From Coptis chinensis (lineage: Eukaryota > Streptophyta > Magnoliopsida > Ranunculales > Ranunculaceae), in assembly GCA_015680905.1 (NCBI GenBank), contig CM027377.1:19430501-19494500 (forward strand): a stretch of DNA of 64,000 nt. Reading direction: 5' to 3'. The notes below the pieces were generated by a model. That model saw only the letters and a program-made list of their open reading frames with translations. It was not told the DNA's origin and ran no database searches. This document shows, in pieces, positions 39,435 to 64,000 of this stretch (position 1 is its first letter; every line of letters begins with the position of its first letter). A program made the position numbers and the translations under genes.

Positions 39435-41153
39435 CAAAATGTTAAGTGTAACTATTACTCCAATATATCGAGTATTACATCAAAATGAACTGGCTCTCTA
39501 TATATACAACAAAAAAAGAGCTATACCCTCTCCTATACAACCAAAGGAGCTAATACTCTCTATAAACAACAAAAGGAACTAATTTCACCCTATACCACAA
39601 AATACTTGACCCTATCCTTCGTGAAGCATAAGGAAATCCGCCCAAATCCCCATAACCATCATCACTAGGGTTAGGGAATGCCTCCTCCGCAATTGGTTCG
39701 GCTGAAATGTTAATGTAGGATGAGCAAAACAACTATGCCCAGTAGAAACGCACATAACCAATAAATAGTCTACTTATAGAAAACATTTAAAACATGCAGA
39801 GTTTCCATAATAATATCCAAATATCGTGACTATATAATACATCACTAACTAGTAGAAATCATTTCGACATGCTTCGTTAATATTCAAAATATAGTTTTCA
39901 CAATCATCATACAACTATTGTGGCCGCTGCCTATTAGAATGGTGAGGGTACGATTGGTACTCAGCCCCAGTCACAGGCATATCTCGGTTCAGTACTTTCT
40001 AGTGTGAAACATGCACCATTGTTTTCCTGATTTTACCGGCAGGGAGCTGAAATGCCGTTGTTGTATTCGTACACACAAAATCCCCAAAGCTTTTAGGGCT
40101 CAGGTGGGTCCTGTGACCACGACCCCCATACGGGCTGTCACCTAACTTACGGTGGTCAACCTTTCGACGACTGCAGACTGCTCAGGATCCTGACACACAT
40201 CCAGGAGTGGACTAAACTCTCACTCCTCGCGTCTAAATCTCATCGAGGTAACATGTAACCTCACACAAGCTAAGCACCATACAACGTGACACGTACAAGC
40301 ATGGTTATCTAGAAAAGTAGAAAGGGAATTCCCGGACTACATCCAGTGATGCATCCCTTTAAAGGTGGCCCACCACCTCGAAAGGTGTATACCCCCGTTA
40401 GAATCCTAGAGCTAACCGTCTCCTAAATCGACAACAGTTCATTCTTTATAGGAATTCACAATTCCTTTTCTAAATCCCCTCGTGATAAGCATAGTACCGG
40501 TCATTTATTTATATATATATTCATTATATATATATAATGAATTATATATATTGCTCAAAAGGAATATATATAATTCAAATACTGTTTTGTTTCCTTTTTA
40601 TTAAGCAAGAGTAAAATATTATGAATGGACAGTAATGCCGTGGGTTGAGGGCATTACTGTCCATTCATAATGTCCAAAGGGTACTGTAAAAGCAGTTTTA
40701 TACCTATCTTCAGGGGCAATTTGGACTTGCCAGTAACCTGACTTAAGGTCAAACTTTGAGAAGATGATCGCTGTGGATAAACGATCTAATAAATCCTTTT
40801 TATTAGGAATAGGATATCTAATCCATTGTAAAGCAAGATAAGAGGTTTAAAATTAATAACCAAATCACGGGAACACCTCTTTCTTTTTCAAATTTGCTTT
40901 ATTGACATAAAAAGTCGTACAACTCCAAGGAGATTTACTTGGAGTAATCAACTTCTTATCCGTAAGACTCGGATCTCTCATGCGCATAAAGTCAAATATT
41001 CTGATTTCATTTGACTAGGTCTAGCCTTAGTGGGAATAAACTGCTCATTAAAGCTAGATTCATAGGGTAAAGAAACCATATCTTTGCTTTCTTTCCCAAA
41101 AAGCATTGGGAATATCACTTCTGCACTTCATAATAAATTGATTTTTAATTTGT

Positions 41154-42650
41154 TCAATTTTTTTTCCTCAAACTCCCCGACCGTTGAGTCTTTTGTTGTA
41201 ATTTTAAAGAAGTTATTTCTTCTTTGAGAAAGTTTAATTGACTTTCTTTGGCTACTAGATTTGTATTAATCATAGCAACCTGCTTTTGAACTGGAGGAGT
41301 TATGAACTCAAAGATAACTCTATTTTTATCAATAGTTGCATGAATACCTATATTAGTGATACTAGTAATAGGCATGATAGAGTTAAGGAAAGGATTTCCT
41401 AGAATAGTATGCTGAGACATATCTTTCACCAGAAGAAAGGTAGTAGATAAACAATGTCCTTCTTTGCACATGAATACATCTGTTAATTTGTATGCAACCT
41501 GCATAGGTGCTCCACTAGCAGTAGAAAGATTTTGAGTAGATTTCTCAAAATATTTAGTAGGAACTAAACCTTCTTGAATACAATTCAGATCTGCTCCACT
41601 GTCAATAAGGGCAACATGATTAGTGAGAGTATATTCTCCTTTAATAACTAAATTAACATGGACATTCCATCTTTGGAATGTAATGTTATTAGTCTTAGTA
41701 TAATTCTGAATATCAAAATTGTCCACCATATTCTTATTGGTCTTTAAGGCTTTTATATCCATTTTAAGGTTATTGACCTCATACTGTAGATCCTGAATAC
41801 TAGTGGTATGAGAATTTCCTTTATATAAAGTATTAGGAAGTCTCATATGATTATAAGAACCAAGGTTCTGTAAGGTCATAAAGTTTTGAAGATAATGAAG
41901 ATCATAAATCTTTTCCTGTGGATTAATCTTAAATTTTCTTATCTTCAAAAGATTACCATAGTCTTGTGGTCTAGTAGAACACTGACTAGTCTTATGACCA
42001 TTATGATCACACTTTATACAAAAACGAAGAGCTTTGGCTTTAGGCCTAAGTTTCTTCCAATGCTGCTTCTCTCTAAGACTTTTTGGTTTTTTATAAGTCT
42101 TAGAATTATTGATTTTAGTAACTAGTATGTTACTATCCTTCTTTTTTATTGGAGGAGGAACAGTCACCATATCCATGTTCACCTTAGAATGTTTTGTTTC
42201 ACATTCTATTACTCCAATATAATTATTAGTAGGAGTAAAATTACATTTTGTAATAGTAATATCCTCCTTGATAACAGGTGGAATAACAATCCTTTCCTGT
42301 TCTTGCATTAGCTCTCTATTAGGTAAATTATTTTCCTTTTTAATTAAGGTATTTTCCTTAGGTAAATCTATTTTTACCTCGGCCATAAGCCTAGCCTCTT
42401 GTTTGGCTTTAAGAAAATCACTGATATCTTTTCTCAGAGTTGCACGCTCAACTCTGCCATTCAGAATTTTATGATTCTGATACTCTAAGCAAAACCATTT
42501 TGTCAGAGGAGTACAATTCCTCTGATGATAATCATAATAATCATCATAAGGTCTAAGCATAGGCTTTAATTGCTCAGGAGTAAAATATTTACTCAACTCT
42601 TCATATTTTAATTTATAAAATTGATAAGTTTCATAAGGTGTATAATCCAT
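41154..42650 (-). pseudogene. Component A zinc-knuckle/protease region (fossil)
   Basis: A long open stretch starting MDYTPYETYQFYKLKYEEL. It holds a CCHC knuckle CIKCDHNGHKTSQC and the retropepsin-type motif DSGADLNC in a protease-like context (VALIDSGADLNCIQEG, TILGNPFLNS). Caulimoviridae use this protease to cut the polyprotein. No coat-protein core is recognised in this component. Confidence 0.8.
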
Positions 42651-43054
42651 CTATAAAACAAAATCCATCTCTGACGCTGTGGGAGATTCCCTAGCTTGCT
42701 GTGTATAAATACCATGTGGTATTTGTTGATTAGAGATACGGATCTCTTCTACAGATTGATTGTACTGTGTTGTAGATTCAGTTTCTGAAACTGAATGCCT
42801 AGAAGATTGTGGTATAGATATCTTGTAAGAGGACCTCAAAGACAAACTTCTTCCAACAAAAGGTTTCTTAAAGTTCAATATAACTTCACCTTCTGTTGTT
42901 TGGACTATCTGGTCTAAATCATTATTAATGATTGGCTGTGGTTGAACAAATGTTTACGCAAAATCCATGATTCTCGAAATTGAATCTCACTCCAAGGAAT
43001 CATCCCGGTGTTGCTACACTAGAAGTTAAAAGATTTGTGTCTATTAACACAGTT

Positions 43055-43675
43055 TTACCGTGTAGTTTTATGCCGTACATTAGGTGTTAAAGTCCGTAAC
43101 ACCTTTGTAGTGAATTCTCGTAAGTAATTCCTATCACTTCGCATCCGGTAAAAGTTATAACCTTTAGCCTTGAATTTGTAATGATACTGAGAATCATAAA
43201 GATTTCTATCCGATAAAGCTAAACTTAAATTAGGATAGACATCAAAATAGACTGGTCCATGACAAAGACTAGTCTCTACTGCTCCCATAAGGGACGGTAA
43301 ATAGTCGAGACACCTAGCATCTCTAAGTGTTGCTTGAATACAAGCATTCATACCCAAAAGGGTCAATGGTCTGAAAGCAACCTGTATTAGGCCTATGTGA
43401 ATAAATTTATAATTTTTCACATGGTGATATAAATCACTAGGACTTAAAAGATTTAAATTATTACTCATGGAATTTAAACTAATAGTTTGTTCCATAGTTT
43501 TTACTGCAATTTTACTGGTCAATTTTTCAATCCAGTTTCCATATCTATATATGGTTTTGGGATCCATATTAGGGATCGTCCATTTATTCATTTTGTCCTG
43601 TGTGTCGAGATCATACTCGATTAATTCTGTGTTCTTAATTGAACTCAGATCATCATTATTTGATGATTGTGCCAT
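43055..43675 (-). pseudogene. Movement protein region, block A1 (fossil)
   Basis: Starts MAQSSNNDDLSSIKNTELIE and contains IHIGLIQVAFRPLTLLGMN and DARCLDYLPSLMGAVETSL, typical of the 30K-superfamily movement proteins that let plant viruses pass plasmodesmata. The same region recurs in the blocks at 51838-52524, 57699-58355 and 62640-63175. Confidence 0.75.
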
Positions 43676-44279
43676 GGGGGTTGAGGTGTTAGTGCAAAAC
43701 AGGTAGAGTATAATGAATTATAACTATACTAAACAGTATAAAAACTATTCTTGATGTAATCATTGACACATCGTCTTCTTCTCCAAATATTATAAACAGT
43801 ATAATCAAAATCAAGTCTTTAGTGCTTATATTAAGTAAAACCACGTCTGTCAACGCTTTACGGGGAGCAAACGGCCTAAACGCATTTCTTGCTAAACGGC
43901 ACAGCATATACCCTACGCGACTTTGGTGACGTCCCAGAGTTACCAATATAAACGTAAAGAAACAATAATGACCTCTTGCTAAGCAAATAGTCTTATTTCA
44001 ACAAGAATAAAATTAAGTAATCTTAACTTCATCTCTAATAAGATACTATTCATAATAATGGGAAAGAAGAGTCAACAGTATTTTAGGATCCAGGCGGACA
44101 TTCTTGTGGTCGGAAAACCGAGCCTTTAAGCAAGTAGTCCTAAAGAGTAACCCTCACACCTTTTTCCTTAATCATACTTATATTTCTTACTTACATCTTT
44201 TCTTAGGAAATCATACAATTAAATATAATTGTAAAACATTTCCTCACCGTTATGCACTAACCTCAAGTTAAGCTGCCAT

Positions 44280-44292
44280 GGCTCTGATACCA
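44280..44292 (-). promoter_or_regulatory. tRNA-Met primer-binding site, block A1
   Basis: The complement reads TGGTATCAGAGCC, matching the 3' end of plant initiator tRNA-Met, the minus-strand primer of Caulimoviridae. Confidence 0.9.
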
Positions 44293-44334
44293 AAATAAAA
44301 GAAAAAGAATGCTCCCTCAGAATTTCAGAATATT

Positions 44335-45180
44335 ATGAATAAGATTTGCAATCCTTATTCGGATTTTGCTATAGTCTATATTGATGATATTCTAATTTAT
44401 TCTAAATCTCTAGAACAACATATTAAGCATTTAAAAATATTTAAAGAGCTTATTAAACGAAATGGTTTAGTAGTATCGGCCCCAAAGATGAAGTTGTTTC
44501 AAACAACGGTGCGTTTTCTTGGGCATAATATTACTGAAGGAACAATTAGTCCTATAGACAGAAGTATTGAGTTTGCTTCTAAATTTCCTGATGAAATTTT
44601 AGATACAACTCAATTACAAAGATTTCTTGGTAGTCTGAATTATTTGGCAGACTATTATGAAAATCTTTCACAGGATACCTCTATTCTATACTCCGTTAAC
44701 AAAGGTTCCAACCTCTTGAGTACGACTCATACTAAGGCGGTACAGAAAATTAAGCTTAAGGCAAAACAATTACCTTGCCTATCTTTGCCTAATTTTAATT
44801 GGTTAAAAATTGTGGAAACAGATGCTTCTAACTTTGGTTATGGTGGCATCTTAAAACAGAAGAACCCTATCTCTGGTAGAGAAGAATTAATCCGTTTTAC
44901 TTCTGGAACTTGGAAGAAAGCACAAATTAATTATTCTACTATTAAACAAGAAATTCTGTCCTTGGTAAAGTGTATTCATAAATTCCAGGATGATTTATTG
45001 AATCAAAAATTCTTGGTACGTATTGATTGTAGTGCTGCTAAATAGGTATTACAGAAAGATATCAAGAATATTGCTTCTAAACAGATTTTTGCAGGATGGC
45101 AAGCGGATCTTTCTGCCTTCGATTTTGACATTGAATATATCAAAGGTAATTCTAATTCTTTGCCAGATTTTCTAACTAGA
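44335..45180 (+). pseudogene. Reverse transcriptase/RNase H region, block A2 (fossil)
   Basis: Contains the RT active-site motif YIDDILIYS, the connection motif RFLGSLNYLADYY and an RNase H start VETDASNFGYGGIL. These motifs are of the caulimovirid type, and the tRNA-Met primer site agrees with that. Confidence 0.88.
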
Positions 45181-45197
45181 GAATTCTTGCAGGGATC

Positions 45198-46364
45198 ATG
45201 AGCACCTCTCAGAGAGGCAAAGGTCGTGGTTATACCACAAGAGGCCGTGGAAAAAGCAAAGGAAAATATAATTTCCTTGACAATAAGGAGCAATTTCCTC
45301 CGTTATCACAGCAAAAAGGAAAGTCAATGAAAGAGGCTGTCCTTACTCCTCTGACTCCTTATGTCCCTAATAAAAGGGCAGATCAAACAGTCATTTATCT
45401 TCAACCAGGAGATGAGCAGTGGATGCCTGATCCTTGGGAAATTCAAAGAAGATATTTTGACACACAGCAGTATCCTGTTGTTGACGGCAAACATAGATAT
45501 ATCTATGAAGAAATTTTAGCTTCGGCTACCTCCAGTATGGATATTCACCATACGTTACAGCATCCTGATTCAGAATATAGTCCGATCTCTTACAGCAAAG
45601 CCATCTTTAAGAGAATTATCTCTTACAATGAGTGGGGTTTGGACCCCAACAAGTGTCGAAAATTGGGTTCGACAAATATCCTATATAACTACTGGGACTA
45701 TATCTCAGCTTTTACTAATGTGTTTTTCTATCAGAATTCTCACAGGAAACACTCATGGTTTATCAAGCTATGCCCACAGTCCATCAAGACTGACTATCCT
45801 TATTGGATCTTTCAGTGGTGGGAGTATTTTGGTCCAGAATTGGATATTCTCCCGGAGAATCTTTTAGATATTTTTCTAAATTGGACTGACAATCATCCTC
45901 AGCTGAAAGGCAATGATAAGATGCCAAGAGGATTATCATCCTTGACCTTTTTTACCATATATGGTATTCCTAGGATATTCAAGTGGGATTTTAGTTGTGA
46001 ATATAATCACCTTAAAATTCCAGTCCTGAAAAGAAAATTCTATTCAAGATGGTGGATTTCTTTTCCAACAGATGAAGCCATCATCAGCATTGAGAATGAT
46101 TTGAAATCATTCATTGAACAGACTCCCAGAATTAATCCTACAGCAGATGTGGATACAGGGAATCCTTTCGATATGATGAAGAATCTTATCAAATTTCAGA
46201 ATCCCAGTTTCTCTGATAGCCAAATCAATGAGTTATGCATGGAGAAGCTTAAAAATCATTTTGTAAATTCCTTTAAGTTACCGTTTTGGAATCCTGTGGT
46301 ACTAAGGAAATTTCATCCTCGAAAAATGCAATGCTATCTTCTCAACATGATGATGTTTCCATGA
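45198..46364 (+). pseudogene. Component A ORF2 (fossil), unknown function
   Basis: Begins MSTSQRGKGRGYTTRGRGK, a basic Gly/Arg-rich N-terminus, then a Trp/Tyr-rich body with WWEYFGPELDIL. It follows RNase H immediately, the position of the second ORF in florendoviruses, whose function is unknown. A second copy is at 53360-54453. Confidence 0.7.
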
Positions 46365-46941
46365 CATCAATTAATAGTCGGGGAAGAAACCAACCAATTT
46401 GCTTAGCTTAGCGGAGAAGGTCACCCCCGAAGAATTGGGTGACAATTTTGATATTACTGAAGCAATAACCCGCTTATATCCAAGCTCTTCCAAGACTCGG
46501 AAAGAACCTATGGACATATGGGCTAAATTTAAAGAAGCCCTTAAGGCAAAACAGAATCCAAGACTACTTCCTTTAAAAAGTAAGGAAGTTCAGTTTACAC
46601 ACTCAAGAATTTTCAGAATACCAAAGATAATAATAATTATCTTTTCAAAGATAATGGCGGATACTATGGCCCAAATTAAGGACCGTAAATAAAATCAGCA
46701 TACTACTTACAACCAGATTCTTATTACTTTATCCAAGAAGGACCCATGAAAGGGACATTTCACCTTTTTCTTTCCTTTAAAGTCAAAAGGTAATGGAATA
46801 AAGTATTAAAAGGATTCTTATCCTTTGAAGACAAAGTAAAAGACAAGTATGCCTTGTCAAAGGCCCACCGACATTTGCACTATTGAAGCACACGTGAGCC
46901 ACTTCTCGCGGACTCCAAATTATATTTTGAGTTCCGACTAG

Positions 46942-46948
46942 TATAAAA
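46942..46948 (+). promoter_or_regulatory. Pregenomic RNA TATA box, block A2
   Basis: TATAAAA in CTAGTATAAAAGG, with a G-box-like CACGTG about 50 bases upstream (46889). A matching box occurs at 59197-59203 (minus) and 62625-62631 (plus). Confidence 0.7.
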
Positions 46949-47153
46949 GGGATACCTCACCCTTGTTGAGGGCATCTAATATTTTACCTTTCAATTTTCT
47001 TTCTAGTTTGCTAAGAGTGCTCTCTCTATCTCCCCTTGTAATATACATTTCCATCCATATAAATAAAAGTTCAGTTTAATCAAGTGTTCTTGCTGCTGAC
47101 TGATCTTCTTCCGCATTAATCAGGTGTTTTACCTGATCTCTTTTTCTTTTATT

Positions 47154-47166
47154 TGGTATCAGAGCC
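47154..47166 (+). promoter_or_regulatory. tRNA-Met primer-binding site, block A2
   Basis: TGGTATCAGAGCC in plus orientation. The sequence then switches at a short shared word to the minus-strand block B1. Confidence 0.9.
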
Positions 47167-47169
47167 AAA

Positions 47170-48483
47170 GAGCTAATCCTGCTGAATTGCTCAAAGAATT
47201 TGGTTTTATTAGAATTGTCCAAGGATTCTGTAAGGATTAAAATCTATCGATTCGCATTTAAAAGTAAACTTTGGATACTTTTTGTAATTGAATTAGATCG
47301 ATAATCCATTTAATCTGATGAAGACCAATAGCACGGATTTCGGCCATTTCTCTGATCCTGTCTTCTGCTGTAATTATATGAAACTTCTCCTTAGATTCCG
47401 AAAGAGAAATGACTCTTGATATGTCATCAAAAGGTCTCTGTTTATGGATTCGCACCAAAAATACTGCAGGATAAGTTTCATCTTCTCAGATATTCGTGAC
47501 AAGTCGTAATAAATTCACGATAAAATAGTTCCACGCCATTTTATCATAGTATTTTCTATGGCCCTGGACCAACGGTGAAGGCGGGAATGTTCTGTCATTA
47601 GTTCCCTGGCTTCCAAAGATACTTCTGTGCTGATGGTTATGGATTTAATAAATCCCATCTCTAGTAATTCATCAATTAAAAACATATCTTCAGGACCAAA
47701 ATATTGCCAAAATGTGGAAGGAAGGAAGATATGAAGACTAGGATGTATACTGTGAGTGCCTTCAGTAATATGGGCAATACCTTTTATAATCAAAGGGCAA
47801 GAACCCAAAACTATTGAATTCCAATTATTAATCCATTTCTGAAAATGTGAAGGAGGAAGATTTTGGATTAATTCAGTAAAAAGGTCTTTGGAAGGGAAAT
47901 TTTGGCTTTATTCCGTAAATATTCAAAAAGTCTTTGGAGAGAATACTCCAAGCCACACAATCAAGGGATCTTTTGAACTATTGGTTTTATCAACCCGAGA
48001 CCAAGGCTTGATTGAGTTACTCGTTAAGCTTGCTAAAATATTTAGCGATGATTTTAAGAATCGGATAAGATCTTTTTATTATCTTTGATCAAATGTATTG
48101 ATAACATTGTCCAAAATGGACTTCTGAAAGCTGTGAAGCTTTTGATGTGTAAAGAACTTATGTCGGTTATCATAGACATAAGGTAACTCTAGATCATCAA
48201 ATCGTACTTTTCTTTTACCAGTACTTTTAGACTCTCTAGAAAAATTATGCGAAGAACTCGCATAAGTGCTGAAAGGTTCAGACTCCAAGGTTTTACCCTT
48301 GTTGATGCTGTTAGAAATACTAACAGACTCCTGGGAATGATCCCAGTTAAGGAGGCCTAAATTGTCCTCAAGAATGTTGATAATCTCAACATTAGCAGTA
48401 TCCTGAAAGGATTCAGAGTCCTTTGATGGTTGCTCTGTGTGCTTTCCATATAATGGATTCTCCAATGAACCAAATTGGAGCAT
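47170..48483 (-). pseudogene. Component B ORF2, block B1 (fossil)
   Basis: Begins MLQFGSLENPLYGKHTEQPS and includes STFWQYFGPEDMFLIDELL. Function unknown. The copy at 60871-62370 is the most open version in the window. Confidence 0.7.
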
Positions 48484-48841
48484 GCTGGATTATGTAAAAA
48501 GACATTCAATTATGCCTTAGATGTACAGGATATAATCCTGGAGAAATATTCTCTGAATAATGAAGAGTATATTATTTCCAAAATATTTGGATACTCATAA
48601 AGCCTTTGTTTGTGAATTATATTTCACAATCTTGGATCTTCCCGTTACGCAAAAAGAAGAAGAGATAAATTCAAGACCAACGGATGATCCTCAAAGTTAG
48701 TGTAAATACCATAATTGTCAATTTTATTTATAGGCATAATGGTATTTAAGAAAGGGGTTCCCAAAGATAATTTCTTTGGTAAGGTCTTTAATTAATAGAA
48801 AAGATAGAGGTATATTAACCTCATTCTTATTAATATTAACC

Positions 48842-50495
48842 TTAGTAAGTCGATCTTTGAATAGCAATTTTACTACCACTAGCACTGGTCATAGTTTGAG
48901 TAGTAGTTTCAAAATATTTTGGTGGAATTAATCCTTCTTGGATGCAATTCATATCTGCACCACTATCGACTAAAGCAATATAATTATCCAGAATATACTC
49001 TCTGTCAATAATCAAGGTTATAAAAATATTCCATTTCCTAGAAAGTATAGAGGAAGTGAAACTGCAGTGTTGGAAGTTACTGTCTTCCTTGAAATAGTGT
49101 TTCTCTATTTGAAACACTCTTTGCTTTAAATGAAGAATCTCTTTGTTGAGATTCTGGATTTTATCATTGAGATTTTGGGTGATTAGAGATTTTGAGGAAC
49201 TAGGTTTATTCTTTCCTAGGCGATCAAAAACCTCTTTAAGATTATATCCTTCTGTAGGATCAACAATGTTGTCCTTAACTGTTTTAAAGCAAGTTTTAAT
49301 TAACTTTAGCTTAGTGTCAGGTTCAGTAATAGAGTCGATAAGCTCTAAGACAGACTGTTGTTCTGAGGTCAGAACATTAATAGCTAACCCATTCATCTGT
49401 AAAATAGCTCTCATGCTATCACATTTAGATTGCAACATGTTACACTGACATGGTGCTTCATTTTCTAAAGAACTAGAGTAAGGATCTTCAGATTCATTAT
49501 CAGATTCAGAAGAACTAGTATTAAGTAAGATTTTACTTAATTGTAATTTAAGATCTTCATTAATCTCTAGATTATTGATTTTCTGTTTAGTATAGCACTG
49601 GTTGGCATAATGACCAATTTTTCCACATTTTAAACAAGTAATATTACTTTTATTGTGTGGATCCTTATAAAAATCTTTATTAGGTTTCCAATTTTTGTTG
49701 AAACTCCTTTTATGTTTTCGAGAATATATTCTCTTACTGTTTTTCTGGGGTTTTCTGGAAGAAATTTTCTTCTTTCTTTGAGAAGGAATATCATAAGCAA
49801 ATTGCTCACAAAATTCTCCTAACTCTTGTTTACCAGAAAGATTCTGTTTTTTAAGCTGATGCTGTAGCTTAAGATCATTGCATAGACTAAGACCTTCTTG
49901 AATGACCTGACTAATGAGACTCCCATAAGTATGAGACTCATAAGAAATATTAGATCCTCCATTAAGATCTCTGAGCTTTTTCCTAACCTTTTCTGCAAAG
50001 ACGTTAGGGAGACCATCAATAAATTTAGATTTCCAATGCTCACTATTAGCATCATGTAATTGTAGAACTTTGGCTAGGAAGACATCCTTATACCACCTAA
50101 AATGAGATAGAGTAGGACATCTAAGATTTTGCAGCATCTCTCTATTCTTTTCAGATTTACAAACCTTCTGGTCCAATAAAATGATGGACAATGGTTAGGC
50201 ATAGAGTGTAGACTGCGTCAGAAATAGATATATTCTGATTAGCTTCGGAACTAAACTCCACTTTGGTAGAGTTATAGATTTCATCTCTTTGCTCATGAGT
50301 GAGAACATTATCCCACCAACCTTTAAGAATACCTACAAATCCATGGGAAATAAACCTGCAGACATCTGCATCTGTATTTCCATGGGCTTTGCAAACACTC
50401 GCATACATGAGCATCTCCTGGAAAGCGTGATAAATCTGATAGTCAGATTTAGCATCAATATTCCAAGTGTAAATAGTCTTAGCTTGATAAGACAC
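48842..50495 (-). pseudogene. Coat protein, zinc knuckle and protease of component B (fossil)
   Basis: Gag-like coat protein motifs FISHGFVGILKGWWDNVL and HWKSKFIDGLPNVFAEKVRK, a lysine/arginine-rich stretch, the CCHC knuckle CLKCGKIGHYANQC, then the protease motif DSGADMNCIQEG. This coat-protein segment occurs only in the B blocks of this window. Confidence 0.8.
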
Positions 50496-50614
50496 TTGGT
50501 CATTAAAATAGGCTTCTTCATAAAGAATATCTTGAGGAGTGGGTCTAGGATAATAATTCTGGCTTGTGACCTATATGACTCACTTTCTCATGATTCGTTC
50601 ATAAGTTATTTTAT

Positions 50615-52524: not shown

Positions 52525-53211
52525 TTTGTCCTGTGTGTCGAGATCATACTCGATTAATTACGTGTTCTTAATTGAACTCGGATCATCATTATTTGATGAT
52601 TGTGCCATGGGGGTTGAGGTGTTAGTGCAAAACAGGTAGAGTATAATGAATTATAACTATACTAAACAGTATAAAAACTATTCTTGATGTAATCATTGAC
52701 ACATCGTCTTCTTCTCCAAATATTATAAATAGTATAATCAAAATCAAGTCTTTAGTGCTTATATTAAGTAAAACCACGCCCCTCAAACGCTTTTACGGGA
52801 GCAAACGGCCTAAACGCATTTCTTGCTAAACGGCACAAATATATACCCTACGACTTTGGTGACGCCCCGAGTTACCAATATAAACGTAAAGAAACAATAA
52901 TGACCTCTTGCTAAGCAAATAGTCTTATTTCAACAAGAATAAAATTAAGTAATCTTAACTTCATCTCTAATAAGATACTATTCATAATAATGGGAAAGAA
53001 GAGTCAATAGTATTTTAGGATCCAGGCGGACATTCTTGTGGTCGGAAAACCGAGCCTTTAAGCAAGTAGTCCTAAAGAGTAACCCTCACACCTTTTTCCT
53101 TAATCATACTTATATCTCTTACTTACATCTTTTCTTAGGAAATCATACAATTAAATATAATTGTAAAACATTTCCTCACCGTTATGCACTAACCTCAAGT
53201 TAAGCTGCCAT

Positions 53212-53224
53212 GGCTCTGATACCA
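53212..53224 (-). promoter_or_regulatory. tRNA-Met primer-binding site, block B1
   Basis: The complement reads TGGTATCAGAGCC, at the junction between the end of block A3 and the leader of block B1. Confidence 0.9.
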
Positions 53225-53359
53225 AATAAAAGGAAAAGAGATCAGGTAAAACACCGACAATCGCGAAAGAAGATCGATCGCCAGCAAAGAACACTTGATT
53301 AAACTGAACTTTTATTTATATGGATGGAAGTGTATGTTACAAGGGGAGATAGAGAGCAT

Positions 53360-54453
53360 GATTCCAAAACTGGTAACTTAAAGGAATTTACAAAATGATT
53401 TTTAAGCTTCTCCATGCATAACTCATTGATTTGGCTATCAGAGAAACTGGGATTCTGAAATTTGATAAGATTCTTCATCATATCGAAAAGGATTCCCTCA
53501 GATCCACATCTTTGTAGGATTAATTCGAGTTCGCTCAATGAATGATTTCAAATCATTCTCAATGCTGATGATGACTTCATCTGTTGGAAAAGAAATCCAC
53601 CATCTTGAATAGAATTTTCTTTTCAGGACTGGAATTTTAAGGTGATTATATTCACAACTAAAATCCCACTTGAATATCCAAGGAATACCATATATGGTAA
53701 AAAAGGTCAAGGATGATAATCCTCTTGGCATCTTATCATTGCCTTCAAACCGGGATGATTGTGAGTCCATTTTAGAAAAATATCTAAAACATTCTCCGGA
53801 GAATATCCAATTCCACCAAAATACTCCCACCACTGAAAAGATCCAATAAGGATAGTCGGTCTTGATGGATGTGGGGCATAGCTTGATAAACCATGAGTGT
53901 TTCCTGTGAGAATTCTGATAGAAAAACACATTAGTAAAAGCTGAGATATAGTCCCAGTAGTTATATAGGATATTTGTCGAACCCAATTTTCGACACTTGT
54001 TGGGGTCCAAACCCCACTCATTGTAAGAGATAATTCTCTTAAAGATGGCTTTGCTGTAAGAGATCGGACTATATTCCGAATCAGGATGCTGTAACGTATG
54101 GTGAATATCCATACTGGAGGTAGCCGAAGCTAAAATTTCTTCATAGATATATCTATGTTTGCCGTCAACAACAACGATATCTTCTGTGTGTCAAAAATAT
54201 CTTCTTTGAATTTCCCAAGGATCGCATCCACCGCCATCTCCTCGGGTTGAAGATAAATGATCGCTTGATCCGCCCTTTTATTAGGGACATAAGGAGTCAG
54301 AGGAGCAAGGACAGCCTCTTTCATTGACTTTCCTTTTTGCTGTGATAACGGAGGAAATTGCTCCTTATTGTCAAGGAAATTATATTTTCCTTTGCTTTTT
54401 CCACGGCCTCTTGTGGTATAACCACGACCTTTGCCTCTCTGAGAGGTGCTCAT
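53360..54453 (-). pseudogene. Component A ORF2, block A3 (fossil)
   Basis: Second copy of the ORF2 at 45198, beginning with the same MSTSQRGKGRGYTTRGRGK. Broken. Confidence 0.7.
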
Positions 54454-54499
54454 GATCCCTGCAAGAATTCTCTAGTTAGAAAATCTAGTCAAAGAATTA

Positions 54500-55466
54500 G
54501 AATTACCTTTGATATATTCAATGTCAAAATCGAAGGCAGAAAGATCCGCTTGCCATCCCGCAAAAAAATCGTTTAGAAGCAATATTCTTGATATCTTTCT
54601 CAGAATACCGTTTAGCAAAGACTACAATCAATACGCACCAAGAATTTTTGATTCAGTAAATCATCCTGGAATTTATGAATACACTTTACCAAGGACAGAA
54701 TTTCTTGTTTAATAGTTGAATAATTAATTTGTGCTTTCTTCCAAGTTCCAGAAGTAAAACGGATTAATTCTTCTCTACCAGAGATAGGGTTCTTCTGTTT
54801 TAAGATGCCACCATAACCAAGGTTAGAAGCATCTGTTTCCACAATTTTTAACCAATTAAAATTAGGCAAAGATAGGCAAGGTAATTGTTTTGCCTTAAGC
54901 TTAATTTTCTGTACCGCCTTAGTATGAGCTGTACTCCAAGAGGTTGGAACCTTTGTTAATATGGAGTATAGAATAGAGGTATCCTGTGAAAGATTTTTAT
55001 AATAGTCTGCCAAATAATTCAGACTACCAAGAAATCTTTGTAATTGAGTTGTATCTAAAATTTCATCAGGAAATTTAGAAGCAAACTCAATACTTCTGTT
55101 TATAGGACTAATTGTTCCTTCAGTAATATTATGCCCAAGAAAACGCACCGTTGTTTGAAACAACTTCATCTTTGGGGCCGATACTACTAAACCATTTCGT
55201 TTAATAAGCTCTTTAAATATTTTTAAATGCTTAATATGCTGTTCTAGAGATTTAGAATAAATTAGAATATCATCAATATAGACTATAGCAAAATCCGAAT
55301 AAGGATTGCAAATCTTATTCATAATATTCTGAAATTCTGAGGGAGCATTCTTTAAGCCAAAGGGCATTACTGTCCATTCATAATGTCCAAAGGGTACTGT
55401 AAAAGCAGTTTTATACCTGTCTTCAGGGGCAATTTGGACTTGCCCAAGAACTCCACTTAAGGTCAA
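54500..55466 (-). pseudogene. Reverse transcriptase/RNase H, block A3 (fossil)
   Basis: Motifs VPFGHYEWTVMPFGLKNAPS, YIDDILIYS, RFLGSLNYLADYY and VETDASNLGYGG in order, as in block A2. Confidence 0.88.
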
Positions 55467-55666
55467 ACTTTGAGAAGATGATCGTGTGGATAAACGATCT
55501 AATAAATCCTTTTATTAGGAATAGGATATCTAATCCATTGTAAAGGCAATATTAAGAGGTTTAAAATTAATAACCAAATTGGGAACACCTCTTTTTTTTT
55601 CAGTTTTGCCTTATTGACATAAAAGTCAGATAACTCCAAGGAGATTTACTTGGAGTAATCAACTTC

Positions 55667-57330
55667 TTATCCGTAAGACTCGGATCTCATGCCGCATAAA
55701 GTCAAATATTCTGATTTCATTTGACTAGGTCTAGCCTTAGTGGGAATAAACCTGTTCATTAAAGCTAGATTCATAGGTAAAGAAACCATATGTTTGCTTT
55801 CTTTCCCAAAAGCATTGGGAATATCACTACGACTTTCAAGTAATAAATTGATTTTTAATTTGTTCAATTTTTTTTTTCAAAACTCCCCGACCGCTGAAGT
55901 CTTTGCTGTAATTTTAAAGAAGTTATTTCTTCTTTGAGAAAGTTTAATTGACTTTCTTTGGCTACTAGATTTGTATTAATCATAGCAACCTGCTTTTGAA
56001 CTGGAGGAGTTATGAACTCAAAGATAACTCTATTTTTATCAATAGTTGCATGAATACCTATATTAGTGATACTAGTAATAGGCATGATAGAGTTAAGGAA
56101 AGGATTTCCTAGAATAGTATGCTGAGACATATCTTTCACCAGAAGAAAGGTAGTAGATAAACAATGTCCTTCTTTGCAGATGAATACATCCATAATTTGT
56201 ATGCAACCTGCATAGGTGCTCCACTAGCAGTAGAAAGATTTTGAGTAGATTTCTCAAAATATTTAGTAGGAACTAAACCTTCTTGAATACAATTCAGATC
56301 TGCTCCACTGTCAATAAGGGTAACATGATTAGTGAGAGTATATTCTCCTTTAATAACTAAATTAACATGGACATTCCATCTTTGGAATGTAATGTTATTA
56401 GTCTTAGTATAATTCTGAATATCAAAATTGTCCACCATATTCTTATTGGTCTTTAAGGCTTTTATATCCATTTTAAGGTTATTGACCTCATCTTGTAGAT
56501 CCCTAATACTAGTGGTATGAGAATTTCCTTTATATAAAGTATTAGGAAGTCTCATATGATTATAAGAACCAAGGTTCGTAAAGGTCATAAAGTTTTGAAG
56601 ATAATGAAGATTATAAATCTTTTCCCCGTGGATTAATCTTAAATTTTCTTATCTTCAAAAGATTACTATAGTCTTGTGGTCCGGTAGAACACTCACTAGT
56701 CTTATGACCATTATGATCACACTTAATAAAAAGCGAAGAGCTTTGGCTTTAGGCCCAAGTCTCTTCCAATACTTGCTTTTTCTCTAAGACTTTTTGGTTT
56801 TTATAAGTCTTAGAATCATTGATTGTTTGTAACTAGTAGGTTACTATCCTTTTCTTTTATTGAGACCTAATACCCATATTCTTATTTACCTTAGAATGTT
56901 TTGTTTCACATTCTAGTACTCCAATATAATTATTAGTAGGACATTTTTTTATAGTAATATCCTTCTTGACAACAGGTGGAATAACAATCCTTTCCTGTTC
57001 TTGAATTACCTCTTTATTAGGTAACTTATTTTCCTTTTTAATTAAGGTATTTTCCTTAGGTAAATCTATTTTTACCTCGGCAATAAGCCTAGCCTCTTGT
57101 TTGCCTCTAAGATAATCACTGATATCTTTTCTCAGAGTTGCACGTTCAACTCTGCCATTCAGAATTTTATGATTCTGATACTCTAAGCAAAACCATTTTG
57201 TCAGAGGAGTACAATTCCTCTGATGATAATCATAATAATCATCATAAGGTCTAAGCATAGGTTTCAATTATGTAGGAGTAAAATATTTACTCAACTCTTC
57301 ATATTTTAATTTATAAAATTGATAAGTTTC
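55667..57330 (-). pseudogene. Zinc-knuckle/protease region, block A3 (fossil)
   Basis: Counterpart of 41154-42650, with the protease motif DSGADLNCIQEG and TILGNPFLNS. Broken. Confidence 0.75.
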
Positions 57331-57348
57331 ATAAGGTGTATAATCCAT

Positions 57349-58355
57349 CTATAAAACAAAATCCATTTCTGACGCTGTGGGAGATTCCCTAGCTTGCTGT
57401 GTATAAATACCATGTGGTATTTGTTGATTAGAGATACGGATCTCTTCTACAGATTGATTGTACTGTGTTGTAGATTCAGTTTCTGAAACTGAATGCCTAG
57501 AAGATTGTGGTATAGAGATCTTGTAAGAGGACCTCAAAGACAAACTTCTTCCAACAAAAGGTTTCTTAAAGTTCAATATAACTTCACCTTCTGTTGTTTG
57601 GACTATCTGGTCAAAATCATTATTAATGATTGGCTGTGGTTGAACAAATAAGTTTTACGCAAATCCATGATTCTGAAATTGAATCTCACTCCAAGGAATC
57701 ATCCCGGTGTTGCTACACTAGAAGTTAAAAGATTTGTGTCTATTAACACAGCCTTTACCAGTGTAGTTTTATGCCGTACATTAGGTGTTAAAGTCTGTAA
57801 CACCTTGTAGTGAATTCTGTAAGTAATTCCTATCACTTCAGATCCAGGTAAAAAGTTATAACCTTTAGCCTGAATTTGTAATGATACAGACTCATAAAGA
57901 TTTCTATCCGATAAAGCTAAACTTAAATTAGGATAGACATCAAAATAGACTGGTCCATGATAAAGACTAGTCTCTACTGCTCCCATAAGGGACGGTAAAT
58001 AGTCGAGACACCTAGCATCTCTAAGTGTTGCTTGAATACAAGCATTCATACCCAAAAGGGTCAATGGTCTGAAAGCAACCTGTATTAGGCCTATGTGAAT
58101 AAATTTATAATTTTTCACATGGTGATATAAATCACGAGGACTTAAAAGATTTAAATTATTACTCATGGAATTTAAACTAATAGTTTGTTCCATAGTTTTT
58201 ACTGCAATTTTACTGGTCAATTTTTCAATCCAGTTTCCATATCTATATATGGTTTTGGGATCCATATTAGGGATCGTCCATTTATTCATTTTGTCCCGTG
58301 TGTCGAGATCATACTTTCGATTAATTCGTGTTCTTAATTGAACTCGGATCATCAT
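57349..58355 (-). pseudogene. Movement protein region, block A3 (fossil)
   Basis: Counterpart of 43055-43675 plus its downstream part (NFKKPFVGRSLSLRSSYKIS, shared with the B block). Broken. Confidence 0.75.
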
Positions 58356-58977
58356 TATTTGATGATTGTGACATGGGGGTTGAGGTGTTAGTGCAAAACA
58401 GGTAGAGTATAATGAATTATAACTATACTAAAAAATTATAAAACTATTCTTTATGTAATCATTGACACATCGTCTTCTTCTCCAAATATTATAAACAATA
58501 TAATCAAAATCAAGTCTTTAGTGCTTATATTAAGTAAAACCACGCCTCATCAACGCTTTTCACGGGAGCAAACGCCTAAACGCATTTCTTGCTAAACGGC
58601 GACAAGATATACCCTACGACTTTGGTGGCGTCCCAGAGTTACCAATATAAACGTAAAGAAACAATAATGACCTCTTGCTAAGCAAATAGTCTTATTTCAA
58701 CAAGAATAAAATTAAGTAATCTTAACTTCATCTATAATAAGATACTATTCATAATAATGGGAAAGAAGAGTCAACAAGATTTTAGGATCCAAAGGACATT
58801 CTTGTGGTCGGAAAACCGAGCCTTTAAGCAAGTAGTCCTAAAGAGTAACCCTCACACCTTTTTCCTTAATCATACTTATATCTCTTACTTACATCTTTTC
58901 TTAGGAAATCATACAATTAAATATAATTGTAAAACATTTCCTCACCGTTATGCACTAACCTCAAGTTAAGCTGCCAT

Positions 58978-58990
58978 GGCTCTGATACCA
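58978..58990 (-). promoter_or_regulatory. tRNA-Met primer-binding site, block A3
   Basis: The complement reads TGGTATCAGAGCC. Immediately upstream on the minus strand is the 3' end of a B component, showing head-to-tail joining of B to A. Confidence 0.9.
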
Positions 58991-60160
58991 AATATTAGGA
59001 AAAGAGATCAGGTAAAACACCTGATTAATGCGGAAGAAGATCAGTCAGCAGCAAGAACACTTGATTAAACTGAACTTTTATTTATATGGATGGAAGTGTA
59101 TATTACAAGGGGAGATAGAGAGAGCACTCTTAGCAAACTAGAAAGAAAATTGAAAGGTAAAATATTGGATCCCCTCAACAAGGGTGAGGTATCCCTTTTA
59201 TACTAGTCGGAACTCAAAATATAATTTGGAGTCCGCGCAGGAAGTGGCTACGTGTGCTTCAATAATTGCAGTCGACAGGGCCACCTTGACAAAGCATACT
59301 TGTCTTTTACTTCTGTCTTCAAAGGATAAGAATCCTTTTGATACTTTATTCCACTACCTTTTCACTTTAAAGAAAAGAAAAAGGTGAAATGTCCCTTTCA
59401 TGGGTCCTTCTTGGATAAAGTAATAAGAATACATCTGCTGATTCTATTTCTGGTCCTTAATTTGGGCCATAGTGTCTGCCATTATGCTGAGTGCGTAGAT
59501 TCTCAGCAACTTGGATGAGGATGTCATTATCCACATCTTCTAGTTCTGACTCAGAGGAAAGGTTCCCAAGATGTTTAAGATACTCATAAGGTCCTTCTTC
59601 ATCTATTAATTTGAGGATCTCCATAGCTGTTGGACTAAGAGCCAAAGAGCTAATCCTGCTGAATTGCTCAAAGAATTTGGTTTTATTAGAATTGTCCAAG
59701 GATTCTGTAAGGATTATAAATCTATCAGATTCAGACAGAAAAGTAAACTTTGGATACTTTTGTGCTGAATTAGATCTGATAAACCATTTAATCTGATGAA
59801 GACCAATAGCACGGATTTCGGCCATTTCTCTGATCCTGTCTTCTGCTGTAATTATATGAAATTTCTCCTTAGATTCCGAAAGAGAAATAACTCTTGATAT
59901 GTCATCAAAAGGTCTCTGTTTATGGATTCGGACCAAAAATACTGCAGGATAAGTTTCATCTTCTGTATATTCAGGACAAGCTGTAATAAATTCACAGTAA
60001 ACAGTTCCACGCCATTTTATCATAGTATTTTCTATGGCCTGAACCAACGGTGAAGGCAGGAATGTTCTGTCATTAGTTCCTTCTTCCAAAGATACTTCTG
60101 TACTGATGGTTATGGATTTAATAAATCCCATCTCTAGTAATTCATCAATTAAACCTAGTT
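58991..60160 (-). mobile_element. Florendovirus-like block B2 (component B, 3' end)
   Basis: Minus-strand 3' part of component B: the end of ORF2 (59457-60160, ELEDVDNDILIQVAENLRTQ), the 3' non-coding region with the TATA box (59197-59203) and the poly(A) signal region, running into the primer site of block A3. Broken. Confidence 0.82.
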
Positions 60161-62636
60161 CCTCAAAGTCTCTAGTCACCCAAAATCTCAATGATAAAAT
60201 CCAGAATCTCAACAAAGAGATTCTTCATTTAAAGCAAAGAGTGTTTCAAATAGAGAAACACTATTTCAAGGAAGACAGTAACTTCCAACACTGCAGTTTC
60301 ACTTCCTCTATACTTTCTAGGAAATGGAATATTTTTATAACCTTGATTATTGACAGAGAGTATATTCTGGATAATTATATTGCTTTAGTCGATAGTGGTG
60401 CAGATATGAATTGCATCCAAGAAGGATTAATTCCACCAAAATATTTTGAAACTACTACTCAAACTATGACCGGTGCTAGTGGTAGTAAAATTGCTATTCA
60501 AAGATCGGCTTACTAAGGTTAATATTAATAAGAATGAGGTTAATATACCTCTATCTTTTCTATTAATTAAAGACCTTACCCAAAGAAATTATACTGAACC
60601 CCTTTCTAAATACCATTATGCCTATAAATAAAATTGACAATTATGGTATTTACACTAACTTTGAGGATCATCCGTTGGTCTTCGAATTTATCTCTTCTTC
60701 TTTGCAGAACAGGAAGATCCAAGATTGTGAAATATAATTCACAAACAAAGGCTTTATGAGTATCCAAATATTTTGGAAATAATATACTCTTCATTATTCG
60801 GAGAATATTTCTCCGTGATTATATCCCGTACATCTAAGGCATAATTGAATGTCTTTTTACGAATCCAAAGATGCTCCAATTTGGTTCATTGGAGAATCCA
60901 TTATATGGAAAGCACACAGAGCAACCATCAAAGGACTCTGAATCCTTTCAGGATACTGCTAATGTTGAGATTATCAACATTCTTGAGGACAATTTAGGCC
61001 TCCTTAACTGGGATCATTCCCAGGAGTCTGTTAGTATTTCTAACAGCATCAACAAGGGTAAAACCTTGGAGTCTGAACCTTTCAGCACTTATGCGAGTTC
61101 TTCGCATAATTTTTCTAGAGAGTCTAAAAGTACTGGTAAAAGAAAAGTACGATTTGATGATCTAGAGTTACCTTATGTCTATGATAACCGACATAAGTTC
61201 TTTACACATCAAAAGCTTCACAGCTTTCAGAAGTCCATTTTGGACAATGTTATCAATACATTTGATCAGCATAATAAAAAAGATCTTATCCAGATTCTTA
61301 AAATCACTGCTAAATATTTTAGCAAGCTTAACCAGAACTCAATCAAGCCTTGGTCTCAGGTTGATAAAACCAATAGTTCAAAAAGATCCCTTGATTGTGT
61401 GGCTTGGAGTATTCTCTCCAAAGACTTTTCAGAATATTTCTGGAATAAAGCCAAAATTTCCCTTCCAGCACCTTTACCTGAATTAATCCAAAATCTTCCT
61501 CCTTCACATTTTCAGAAATGGATTAATAATTGGAATTCAATAGTTTTGGGTTCTTGCCCTTTGATTATAAAAGGTATTGCCCATATTACTGAAGGCACTC
61601 ACAGTATACATCCTAGTCTTCATATCTTCCTTCCTCCCACATTTTGGCAATATTTTGGTCCTGAAGATATGTTTTTAATTGATGAATTACTAGAGATGGG
61701 ATTTATTAAATCCATAACCATCAGCACAGAAGTATCTTTGGAAGCAGGAACTAATGACAGAACATTCCTGCATTCACCGTTGGTCCAGGCCATAGAAAAT
61801 ACTATGATAAAATGGCGTGGAACTATTTACTGTGAATTTATTACAGCTTGTCCTGAATATACAGAAGATGAAACTTATCCTGCAGTATTTTTGGTCCGAA
61901 TCCATAAACAGAGACCTTTTGATGACATATCAAGAGTCATTTCTCTTTCGGAATCTAAGGAGAAGTTTCATATAATTACAGCAGAAGACAGGATCAGAGA
62001 AATGGCCGAAATCCGTGCTATTGGTCTTCATCAGATTAAATGGATTATCAGATCTAATTCAGTACAAAAGTATCCAAAGTTTACTTTTCTGTCTGAATTT
62101 GATAGATTTTTAATCCTTACAGAATCCTTGGACAATTCTAATAAAACCAAATTCTTTGAGCAATTCAGCAGGATTAGCTCTTTGGCTCTTAGTCCAACAG
62201 CTATGGAGATCCTCAAATTAATAGATGAAGAAGGACCTTATGAGTATCTTAAACATCTTGGGAACCTTTCCTCTGAGTCAGAACTAGAAGATGTGGATAA
62301 TGACATCCTGATCCAAGTTGCTGAGAATCTACGCACTCAGCATAATGGCAGACACTATGGCCCAAATTAAGGACCAGAAATAGAATCAGCAGCTGTATTC
62401 ATTTTACTTTATCCAAGAAGGACCCATGAAAGGGACATTTCACCTTTTTCTTTTCTTTAAAGTCAAAAGGTAATGGAATAAAGTATCAAAAGGATTCTTA
62501 TCCTTTGAAGACAGAAGAAAAAGACAAGTATGCTTTGTCAAGGTGGCCCAGTCGACTGCAACTATTGAAGCACACGTTGCCACTTCCTGTGCGGACTCCA
62601 AATTATATTTTGAGTTCCGACTAGTATAAAAGGTAT
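60150..62636 (+). mobile_element. Florendovirus-like block B3 (component B, 3' half)
   Basis: Plus-strand fossil abutting block B2 in the opposite orientation: protease region (to 60516, DSGADMNC), ORF2 and the 3' non-coding region to just past the TATA box. Broken, about three breaks. Confidence 0.82.
60871..62370 (+). pseudogene. Component B ORF2, block B3 (fossil)
   Basis: A 499-codon open stretch starting MLQFGSLENPLYGKHTEQPS and ending LRTQHNGRHYGPN. It has an acidic/serine N-terminus, a basic patch STGKRKVRFDDLELPY, a Trp-rich centre with FWQYFGPEDMFL and an acidic C-terminus. No family beyond the virus itself is recognised. The centre resembles WWEYFGPELDIL of component A ORF2. Confidence 0.72.
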
Positions 62637-64000
62637 TAATCGAGTATGATCTCGACACACAGGACAAAATGAATAAATGGACGATCCCTAATATGGATCC
62701 CAAAACCATATATAAATATGGAAACTGGATTGAAAAATTGACCGATGAAAATTGCGGTAAAAAACTATGGAACAAACTATTAGTTTAAATTCCATGAGTA
62801 ATAATTTAAATCTTTTAAGTCCTAGTGATTTATATCACCATGTGAAAAATTATAAATTTATTCACATAGGCCTAATCTGAGGTTGCTTTTCGCACCATTG
62901 ACCCTTTTGGGTATGAATGCTTGTATTCAAGCAACACTTAGAGATGCTAGGTGTCTCGACTATTTACCGTCCCTTATGGGAGCAAGCGTAGAGACTAGTC
63001 TTTGTCATGGACCAGTCTATTTTGATGTCTATCCTAATTTAAGTTTAGCTTTATCGGATAGAAATCTTTATGATTCTCAGATCATTACAAATTCAAAGCT
63101 AAAGGTTATAACTTTTTACCTAGATCCAAGTGATAGGAATTACTTACGAATTCACTACAAGGTGTTACGGAGACTTTAACACCTAATGTAAAACATAAAA
63201 CTACACCACCAAGACTGTGTTAATAGACACAAATCTTTTAACTTCTAGTGTAGCAACCCGGGATGATTCCTTGGATTGAGATTCAATTTCGAAATCATGG
63301 ATTTGCAAAAAAAGCTTTGTTCAACCACCCAATCATTAATAATGATTTAGACCCGGATAGTCCAAACAAATGTAAGGTGAAGTTATATTGAACTTTAAGA
63401 AACCTTTTGTTGGAAGAAGTTTGTCTTTGAGGTCCTCTTACAAGATCTCTATACCACAATCTTCTAGGCATTGGGGTTTGGCTGAATCTACAACACAAGA
63501 CAATCAATCTCGTAGAAGAGATCCAGATCTCTAATCAACAAATACCACATGGTATTTATACCGCGACAAGCTAGGAATCTCCCACAGCGTCAGAGATGGA
63601 TTTTGTTTTATAGATGGATTATACACCTTATGAAACTTATCAATTTTATAAATTAAAATATGAAGAGTTGAGTAAATATTTTACTCCTACAGAATTAAAG
63701 CCTATGCTTAGACCTTATGATGATTATTATGATTATCATCAGAGGAATTGTACTCCTCTGACAAAATGGTTTTGCTTAGAGTATCAGAATCATAAAATTC
63801 TTAATGGCAGAGTTGAGCGTGCAACTCTGAGAAAAGATATCAGTGATTTTCTTAAAGCCAAACAAGAGGCTAGGCTTATGGCCGAGGTAAAAATAGATTT
63901 ACCTAAGGAAAATACCTTAATTAAAAAGGAAAATAATTTACCTAATAGAGAGGTAATGCAAGAACAGGAAAGGATTGTTATTCCACCTGTTATCAAGGAG
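62637..64000 (+). mobile_element. Florendovirus-like block A4 (5' part, runs off the right edge)
   Basis: Plus-strand movement-protein region (62640-63175 and on), followed by the MDYTPYETYQFYKLKYEEL region (63612-64000), still open at the window edge. The NLPNREVMQEQERIVIPPV stretch matches component A rather than B. Broken, several breaks. It is joined to block B3 within the promoter region. Confidence 0.78.

What the first reader, a model, noticed from the sequence alone, without database searches (positions are those of the whole stretch)
40619..64000. Both components of a two-part florendovirus-like genome in one locus
Two genome types share the leader, primer site, movement protein, about 100 codons after it, and the 3' non-coding end. 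They differ in the middle. Type A has zinc knuckle, protease, RT and RNase H but no coat protein recognised. Type B has coat protein, zinc knuckle and protease but no RT recognised. Each has its own ORF2. Neither type alone carries a full gene set. A bipartite organisation has been reported for some florendoviruses; finding both halves interleaved in one integration is unusual.
Basis: partly seen in the sequence, partly recalled or inferred. Interest (0 to 1): 0.9.

Follow-up and report, generated by a model that had tools for sequence, protein, structure and literature searches.

The report
Two-part plant pararetrovirus fossils in Coptis
In a plant genome that is very likely Coptis chinensis, old virus copies occur as two separate molecules, one with the copying enzyme but no coat protein found and the other with the coat protein but no copying enzyme found, which likely depended on each other like the two-part florendoviruses already reported from grapevine and rice.

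Summary
From 40619 to the window end, and some 20 kb beyond, lie rearranged copies of two pararetrovirus molecules. A: leader, tRNA-Met site, movement protein, protease, RT, RNase H, own ORF2, no coat protein. B: same leader and movement protein, then coat protein, zinc knuckle, protease, a different ORF2, no RT. The split recurs in the host assembly (very likely Coptis chinensis): 0 of 100 scored coat-protein rows have an RT within 4 kb downstream. A 26-base tag in the shared part leads to RT in 23 of 60 units, to coat protein in 26, to neither in 11, to both in none. 26 of 121 loci hold both types. Across 5 A and 2 B copies the shared region has no fixed difference in 1890 columns, while the proteases are synonymously saturated: the components likely exchanged that region. 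This matches bipartite florendoviruses published from Vitis, Oryza and Sorghum, compound insertions included: a new member of a known kind, in a plant order for which my paper searches found no report. Florendovirus membership by RT tree was not tested. Mutual complementation is inferred; an exogenous one-piece helper is not excluded.

The parts
40510..40580 (.). TA-rich host flank at the left border
   Evidence: read
40618..40671 (.). fold-back (short inverted repeat of RT sequence) at the left border
   Evidence: self-match of 54 bases, 85%
40648..44308 (-). component A, 5' part: tRNA-Met site 44292-44281, leader, MP ORF 43717-43055, ORF1b (zinc knuckle, protease) 42650-41154, start of RT
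44304..47167 (+). component A, 3' part: RT/RNase H 44304-45045, ORF2A 45180-46364, 3' non-coding end from about 46651 up to the tRNA-Met site 47154-47165
47153..53356 (-). component B: 3' end piece 53356-53228, tRNA-Met site 53224-53213, leader, MP 52650-51988, shared ORF1b start 51574-51274, B-specific link 51240-50615, DUF7746 50570-50200, coat protein 50194-49660, zinc knuckle and protease 49640-48842, ORF2B 48516-47153
53357..58990 (-). component A: leader, MP 58416-57755, shared ORF1b start 57348-57048, zinc knuckle/protease 56941-55910, RT/RNase H 55511-54612, ORF2A 54471-53357 (its end and most of the 3' non-coding part missing at the join to B)
58991..60153 (-). component B 3' end: ORF2B part 60153-59497 and 3' non-coding end 59476-58997, running into the tRNA-Met site 58990-58979 of the next A copy (B to A head-to-tail join)
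60150..62636 (+). component B 3' half: protease 60150-60516, ORF2B 60838-62370, 3' non-coding end
62635..64000 (+). component A without leader: MP from 62635, shared ORF1b from 63614, A-type sequence at the window edge; continues outside the window (L039)
41512..41647 (-). protease core shared by A and B at only 74% (matches B at 49011-48876)

Best explanation
The locus holds interleaved copies of two complementary pararetrovirus genome components, A (protease, reverse transcriptase and RNase H, no coat protein found) and B (coat protein and protease, no reverse transcriptase found), which likely replicated together as a two-part florendovirus-like virus. Shown: the domain split, its constancy among the scored genome copies, the common leader, tRNA-Met site, MP and 3' end, and the recurrent A-B head-to-tail joins. 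Inferred: A would supply RT/RNase H for both molecules, B would supply the coat protein for both; both RNAs would be copied from the same tRNA-Met site. The common region of about 2.6 kb around the origin was likely kept alike by recombination or template switching between the two, while protease, zinc-knuckle region and ORF2 diverged. Head-to-tail A-B joins would arise by recombination in that common region before or during capture by chromosomal break repair, and later rearrangement would have inverted pieces of the array.
For: Domains. Genome-wide: 0 of 100 coat-protein rows with RT within 4 kb downstream, 0 of 97 RT rows with ORF2B within 1.5 kb downstream, 58 of 100 coat-protein rows with ORF2B within 1.5 kb downstream; in 39 of 60 B places examined the protease-ORF2B gap is 306-453 bases, median 328, too short for an RT. 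30 of 30 RT loci have ORF2A, 29 the A protease, 0 a coat core. 60 tagged units: 23 A, 26 B, 11 neither, 0 both. 121 loci: 46 A only, 49 B only, 26 both; 45 A-B pairs under 20 kb against 0.32 expected, pairs of one array counted each. Head-to-tail joins recur: RT downstream of the coat protein on the same strand at 5767, 5844 and 5845, or RT start to coat end 6651-7449 seven times; seams read in the window, L040 and L042. Shared region, 5 A and 2 B copies: A-B identity 93.7-96.1%, A-A 92.5-96.7%, 0 fixed differences in 1890 columns, 37 shared polymorphisms, against protease dN 0.49-0.51 with dS not computable, read as saturated. Both stop variants before ORF1b occur in both types: TAG/TAA 20/3 in A, 20/6 in B.
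Against: No virion, transcript or replication evidence. An exogenous one-piece helper that never integrated cannot be excluded. Genome counts are lower bounds: 131 of 17326 (RT), 94 of 895 (coat) and 84 of 338 (ORF2B) first-look candidates were scored. 11 of 60 tagged units lead to neither domain, and 13 of 60 B places had no scored ORF2B within 15 kb. Array order depends on the assembly. ORF2A and ORF2B share only a short WxYFGPE-type motif (hhalign probability 0.5%), unlike the homology reported in Vitis. No RNase H remnant was found in B by tblastn with the A protein, whereas Vitis B keeps the C-terminal part.
Confidence: 0.8

Rival explanations
1. A and B are defective derivatives of an ordinary one-piece virus that supplied the missing functions and is not held in this genome; they were passengers, not a two-part genome.
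For: Both types look like deletion forms of the standard order; one-piece arrangements exist in other plants (Camellia gene model P0053: zinc knuckle, protease, RT, RNase H in one protein). Chen et al. 2017 (PMC5491270, passages) propose such a commensal case in rice.
Against: No one-piece copy among the 97 RT and 100 coat-protein rows scored, and the RT rows fall from 49% to 31-36% identity, so no clear second caulimovirid RT was scored. Protease divergence with dS not computable (read as saturated) but dN about 0.5 suggests long separate upkeep of both.
Confidence: 0.13
2. The split is a product of rearrangement after integration, or of misassembly, at this locus.
For: The array is heavily rearranged: inversions, a fold-back at the left border, deleted joins.
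Against: The two organisations recur across 121 loci on several chromosomes with fixed spacings; a Coptis gene model (P0001) joins coat protein to ORF2B without RT.
Confidence: 0.03
3. A and B come from two different florendovirus-like species that merged into a partnership by one acquiring the other's leader-MP region, rather than from one ancestor that split.
For: The A and B proteases score no better against each other (90.9 bits) than against proteins of other plants or unnamed sources (A against P0004 91.3, B against P0003 89.7); A and B were one side of a branch in 0 of 200 bootstrap trees; the ORF2 proteins share only a short motif.
Against: AU test does not reject one clade (p 0.327); only about 100 alignable residues, and long branches meet in the tree. 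Weak A-B similarity goes on past the shared region (29% over 201 aa, E 7e-12; part of it is the fading edge of that region), as expected from a common ancestral ORF.
Confidence: 0.2

Closest known systems
Bipartite florendoviruses VvinBV and VvinDV (Vitis), OsatBV (Oryza), SbicV (Sorghum), Geering et al. 2014, PMC4241990 (passages read)
   Same: Component A lacks the coat protein, component B lacks RT; high identity in intergenic region (>90%) and MP (>87%); own ORF2 on A and an ORF2-like end on B; compound A/B insertions (Vitis, Oryza); TA-rich flanks.
   Different: Other host order (Ranunculales); no RNase H remnant found in B; ORF2B nearly unrecognisable against ORF2A; a stop codon directly before the ATG of the second polyprotein ORF in both types.
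ePVCVL/ePVCVL2 partnership in grasses, Chen et al. 2017, PMC5491270 (passages read)
   Same: Two complementary non-autonomous pararetroviruses whose intergenic regions (and neighbouring regions) are homogenised by recombination.
   Different: Here the common stretch takes in the MP and about 100 codons of the next ORF; no fixed A/B difference in 1890 columns (5 A, 2 B copies).
Bipartite florendovirus-type elements of sugar beet (cited in review PMC10377300, passages; original paper not seen)
   Same: Reported as bipartite florendoviruses in a eudicot.
   Different: Not compared; no sequence was on hand.
Glycine max virus, Geering et al. 2014
   Same: ORF1 divided after the MP domain.
   Different: Not listed among the bipartite ones.

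Membership tests
Bipartite florendovirus (components A and B) | A carries RT and RNase H but no coat protein | tested here: met
   30 of 30 RT loci (one in the window) without coat core or DUF7746 within 1.5 kb; tag-to-RT distance 1.8-2.2 kb in 23 units
Bipartite florendovirus (components A and B) | B carries coat protein and protease but no RT | tested here: met
   0 of 100 coat rows with RT within 4 kb downstream; gap to ORF2B 306-453 bases in 39 of 60
Bipartite florendovirus (components A and B) | intergenic region and MP nearly identical between A and B | tested here: met
   A-B 93.7-96.1% over leader, MP and ORF1b start, 10 pairs
Bipartite florendovirus (components A and B) | B ends in a domain homologous to ORF2 of A | tested here: inconclusive
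   only a 17-residue motif, hhalign probability 0.5%
Bipartite florendovirus (components A and B) | B keeps the C-terminal part of RNase H (Vitis) | tested here: not met
   no hit of the A RT/RNase H protein in B; described for Vitis, the grass forms being said to have the same overall structure
Genus Florendovirus (proposed) | place in the AP-RT-RH1 tree next to Petuvirus | not tested
   no named reference RT sequences were at hand
Genus Florendovirus (proposed) | ORF2 of a kind specific to florendoviruses | tested here: inconclusive
   ORF2A has 12 homologues, 5 of them named and all 5 from plant genomes, no Pfam family, no fold match; none is labelled florendovirus
Genus Florendovirus (proposed) | MP, CP, AP, RT, RH1 in that order in one ORF1 | tested here: not met
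   the set is spread over A and B and ORF1 is divided; the published bipartite members do not carry the full set on one molecule either
Caulimoviridae | RT/RNase H, 30K MP, caulimovirus-type coat domain, tRNA-Met primer site | tested here: met
   (the tRNA-Met site motif is recalled)

The most novel reading that the evidence does not exclude
The Coptis virus was an obligate two-segment retroelement virus made by merging two different florendovirus-like species: they pooled one leader-MP-3'-end region through constant exchange, each lost what the other supplied, and no one-piece form was left in the host's fossil record. Segmentation in pararetroviruses would then arise by partnership, not by splitting one genome.
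Probability: 0.2. Interest if true: 0.75.

Novelty: new member of a known kind. Interest (0 to 1): 0.5.

Why it matters
Geering et al. call a divided genome unique among viral retroelements, and the published cases I saw come from few plants. This adds a case in Ranunculales with many copies of both components, which gives clear statistics: no one-piece copy among the scored rows, near-equal numbers of A and B (81 and 93 merged places, lower bounds), recurrent A-B joins, and a sharply bounded common region. It makes the question whether pararetrovirus segmentation starts by splitting or by partnership testable in one genome. For the specialist it is a confirmation in a new host more than a surprise.

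Tried and rejected
Tried without result: viral contigs for the A RT (no relative); fold search for ORF2A (model mean pLDDT 70.7, pTM 0.62; no PDB or BFVD match at E 0.001 or better); model of ORF2B (mean pLDDT 32, not used); profile comparison ORF2A against ORF2B (motif only); protease tree for splitting against merging (61 rows: 4 window, 57 of 212 database proteins, the rest without a match of 85 columns or more; inconclusive); reading frames between MP and ORF1b in 7 copies (all 7 have the stop before the ATG, the rest is too decayed). Rejected: local artefact; an RT hidden in the B gap; chance clustering of A and B. One search used a hand-picked part of the rows and left out by oversight two coat rows reaching residue 405; one search repeats the key counts, though not the gap measure, on all 97, 100 and 88 rows. 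One search used hand-picked RT and coat rows; with all rows gives the same 23/26/11/0.
Full report
What is there. The stretch from 40619 to the end of the window consists of pieces of two related pararetrovirus molecules, on both strands. Read in sense direction, type A runs: tRNA-Met-type site, leader, MP, a further stretch of about 100 codons, a stop, ORF1b (shared for about 100 codons, then A-specific zinc knuckle and protease), RT and RNase H, ORF2A, 3' non-coding end. Type B runs the same up to about codon 100 of ORF1b, then a B-specific link, DUF7746, caulimovirus-type coat domain, zinc knuckle, protease, about 330 bases (they hold the last part of the protease in another frame), ORF2B, and the common 3' end. 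The A zinc knuckle was read by eye only, and the B zinc knuckle lies just under Pfam's cut-off.

Order in the window. Minus strand A 5' part (44308-40648), joined head-on to plus strand A 3' part (44304-47167), which ends at the tRNA-Met site. The two A parts meet within RT sequence, as if one A copy had its 5' half turned round (inference). Then minus strand B (53356-47153), minus strand A (58990-53357), minus strand B 3' end (60153-58991), plus strand B 3' half (60150-62636), plus strand A without leader (62635-64000). The B 3' end runs without break into the tRNA-Met site of the next A copy; the A to B join at 53356/53357 lacks the end of ORF2A and most of the 3' non-coding part. The left border carries a fold-back and a TA-rich flank. 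Outside the window A continues (L039) and meets, tail to tail, what looks like one B copy with 6.5 kb between its protease and ORF2B, preceded by an A copy joined to it through a complete 3' end and leader (L040).

Host. The window lies at G000:C1:19430501-19494500 of a 935.6 Mb assembly. Contig C6 has 100,393,100 bases, the same length as the contig of the best protein match, P0001 of Coptis chinensis (95% identity over 32% of the B query). P0001 joins coat protein to ORF2B without RT, as a gene model. The host is therefore very likely Coptis chinensis.

Genome-wide test. RT of A: 132 rows, 97 at 49% identity or more, the other 35 at 31-36% and of the general RT kind, set aside. Coat-zinc-protease protein of B: 100 rows, 64-100%. 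ORF2B: 88 rows. Merged, 81 RT and 93 coat places form 121 loci: 46 A only, 49 B only, 26 both; 45 pairs closer than 20 kb on either strand against 0.32 expected at random, pairs of one array being counted each. On all rows, 0 of 100 coat rows have an RT within 4 kb downstream on the same strand, 58 of 100 have ORF2B within 1.5 kb, and 0 of 97 RT rows have ORF2B within 1.5 kb. In the 30 RT loci fetched (the 30 best of the 97 rows; L009 lies in the window, L010 is the continuation of its last A copy), 30 have ORF2A, 29 the A protease, none a coat core, DUF7746 or ORF2B within 1.5 kb of the RT. Of 60 B places examined, 39 have a protease-ORF2B gap of 306-453 bases, 8 a longer one, and 13 had no scored ORF2B within 15 kb. 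A pattern across the stop-ATG junction matches 63 places with up to 2 mismatches (reversed control 0); 3 identical ones with another flank and no stop were set aside as unrelated without looking at their surroundings. Of the remaining 60, 23 lead to RT at about 1.8-2.2 kb, 26 to coat protein at about 1.4-1.8 kb, 11 to neither (the rearranged first A copy of the window is one), none to both. Counts are lower bounds because only the best candidates are scored.

The common region. Over leader, MP and ORF1b start, 5 A copies (one partial) and 2 B copies show A-A 92.5-96.7%, B-B 95.2%, A-B 93.7-96.1%, no fixed A/B difference in 1890 columns and 37 polymorphisms shared by both types; the tree, weakly resolved, does not separate A from B. 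Identity then drops from about 96% to about 50% within 300 columns. In the protease dN is 0.49-0.51 and dS is not computable (read as saturation), against dN 0.026 and dS 0.080 in the ORF1b start (first A copy against the B copy). The codon before the ORF1b ATG is a stop in 59 of the 60 places, 48 TAG and 11 TAA, one CAG; both stop variants occur in A (20 and 3) and in B (20 and 6). The simplest reading is steady exchange of this region between the two molecules, with the rest diverging. The pattern search favours well-kept copies.

How it likely works. Shown: complementary gene sets and common signals. Inferred: A would provide RT/RNase H, B the coat protein, each to both molecules, with both copied from the same primer site. 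Head-to-tail arrangements recur on several chromosomes: RT downstream of the coat protein at 5767, 5844 and 5845, or RT start to coat end 6651-7449 seven times (two of these seven in this array), with a few same-strand pairs nearer (4162, 4829) or further away. Recombination in the common region would give such joins. Capture by break repair is what Geering et al. suggest for florendoviruses.

Known. Geering et al. 2014 (PMC4241990, passages) describe components A and B with this split in Vitis, Oryza and Sorghum and compound insertions in Vitis and Oryza. Chen et al. 2017 (PMC5491270, passages) describe homogenised intergenic regions between such partners. A review (PMC10377300, passages) adds sugar beet. 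Searches for Coptis with pararetrovirus (none) and with caulimovir (two papers: in one, PMC12451643, one search found the word Coptis nowhere in the main text; the other was seen in the listing only), and for Ranunculales with endogenous and caulimovir (none), found no earlier report; the listings showed none by title. PMC9719215, PMC13308828, PMC9794742 and PMC5766536 were searched for words and read in passages only. I file it as a new member of a known kind, florendovirus-like, with genus membership untested.

Open. Whether A and B arose by splitting or by merging is unresolved: the proteases are as far from each other as from those of other collected proteins, 0 of 200 bootstrap trees join them, but the AU test allows it (p 0.327). 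ORF2A has relatives in other plants; ORF2B matched none beyond Coptis among the 212 proteins collected, and ORF2B itself was not used in a search of the large protein database.

Noticed in passing
window 42651-42653 and 51575-51577; 60 places genome-wide: A stop codon (TAG, or TAA in some copies) stands directly before the ATG of ORF1b in 59 of 60 matched places, in both types; it may be a real division of ORF1 with reinitiation or readthrough.
   Followed up: partly
G000:C6:63643087-63687351 and C1:19682796-19717686: Further large mixed arrays (order of scored places BBABBBA and ABBBB), the second about 170 kb from this locus.
   Followed up: partly
L039:6206 to L040:2730: About 6.5 kb lie between ORF2B and the protease of what looks like one B copy right of the window, probably an inserted element; not identified.
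   Followed up: no
window 38199-39067: Tandem array of a 138-base unit, 6.3 copies, close to the left border of the viral array, in a stretch of higher G+C.
   Followed up: no
P0115: A protein named by its source as a Chryseobacterium MAG product looks like a plant pararetrovirus protease, probably a contaminant contig.
   Followed up: no
window 27715-28360: Imperfect palindromic tandem repeats (unit about 33-34 bases).
   Followed up: no
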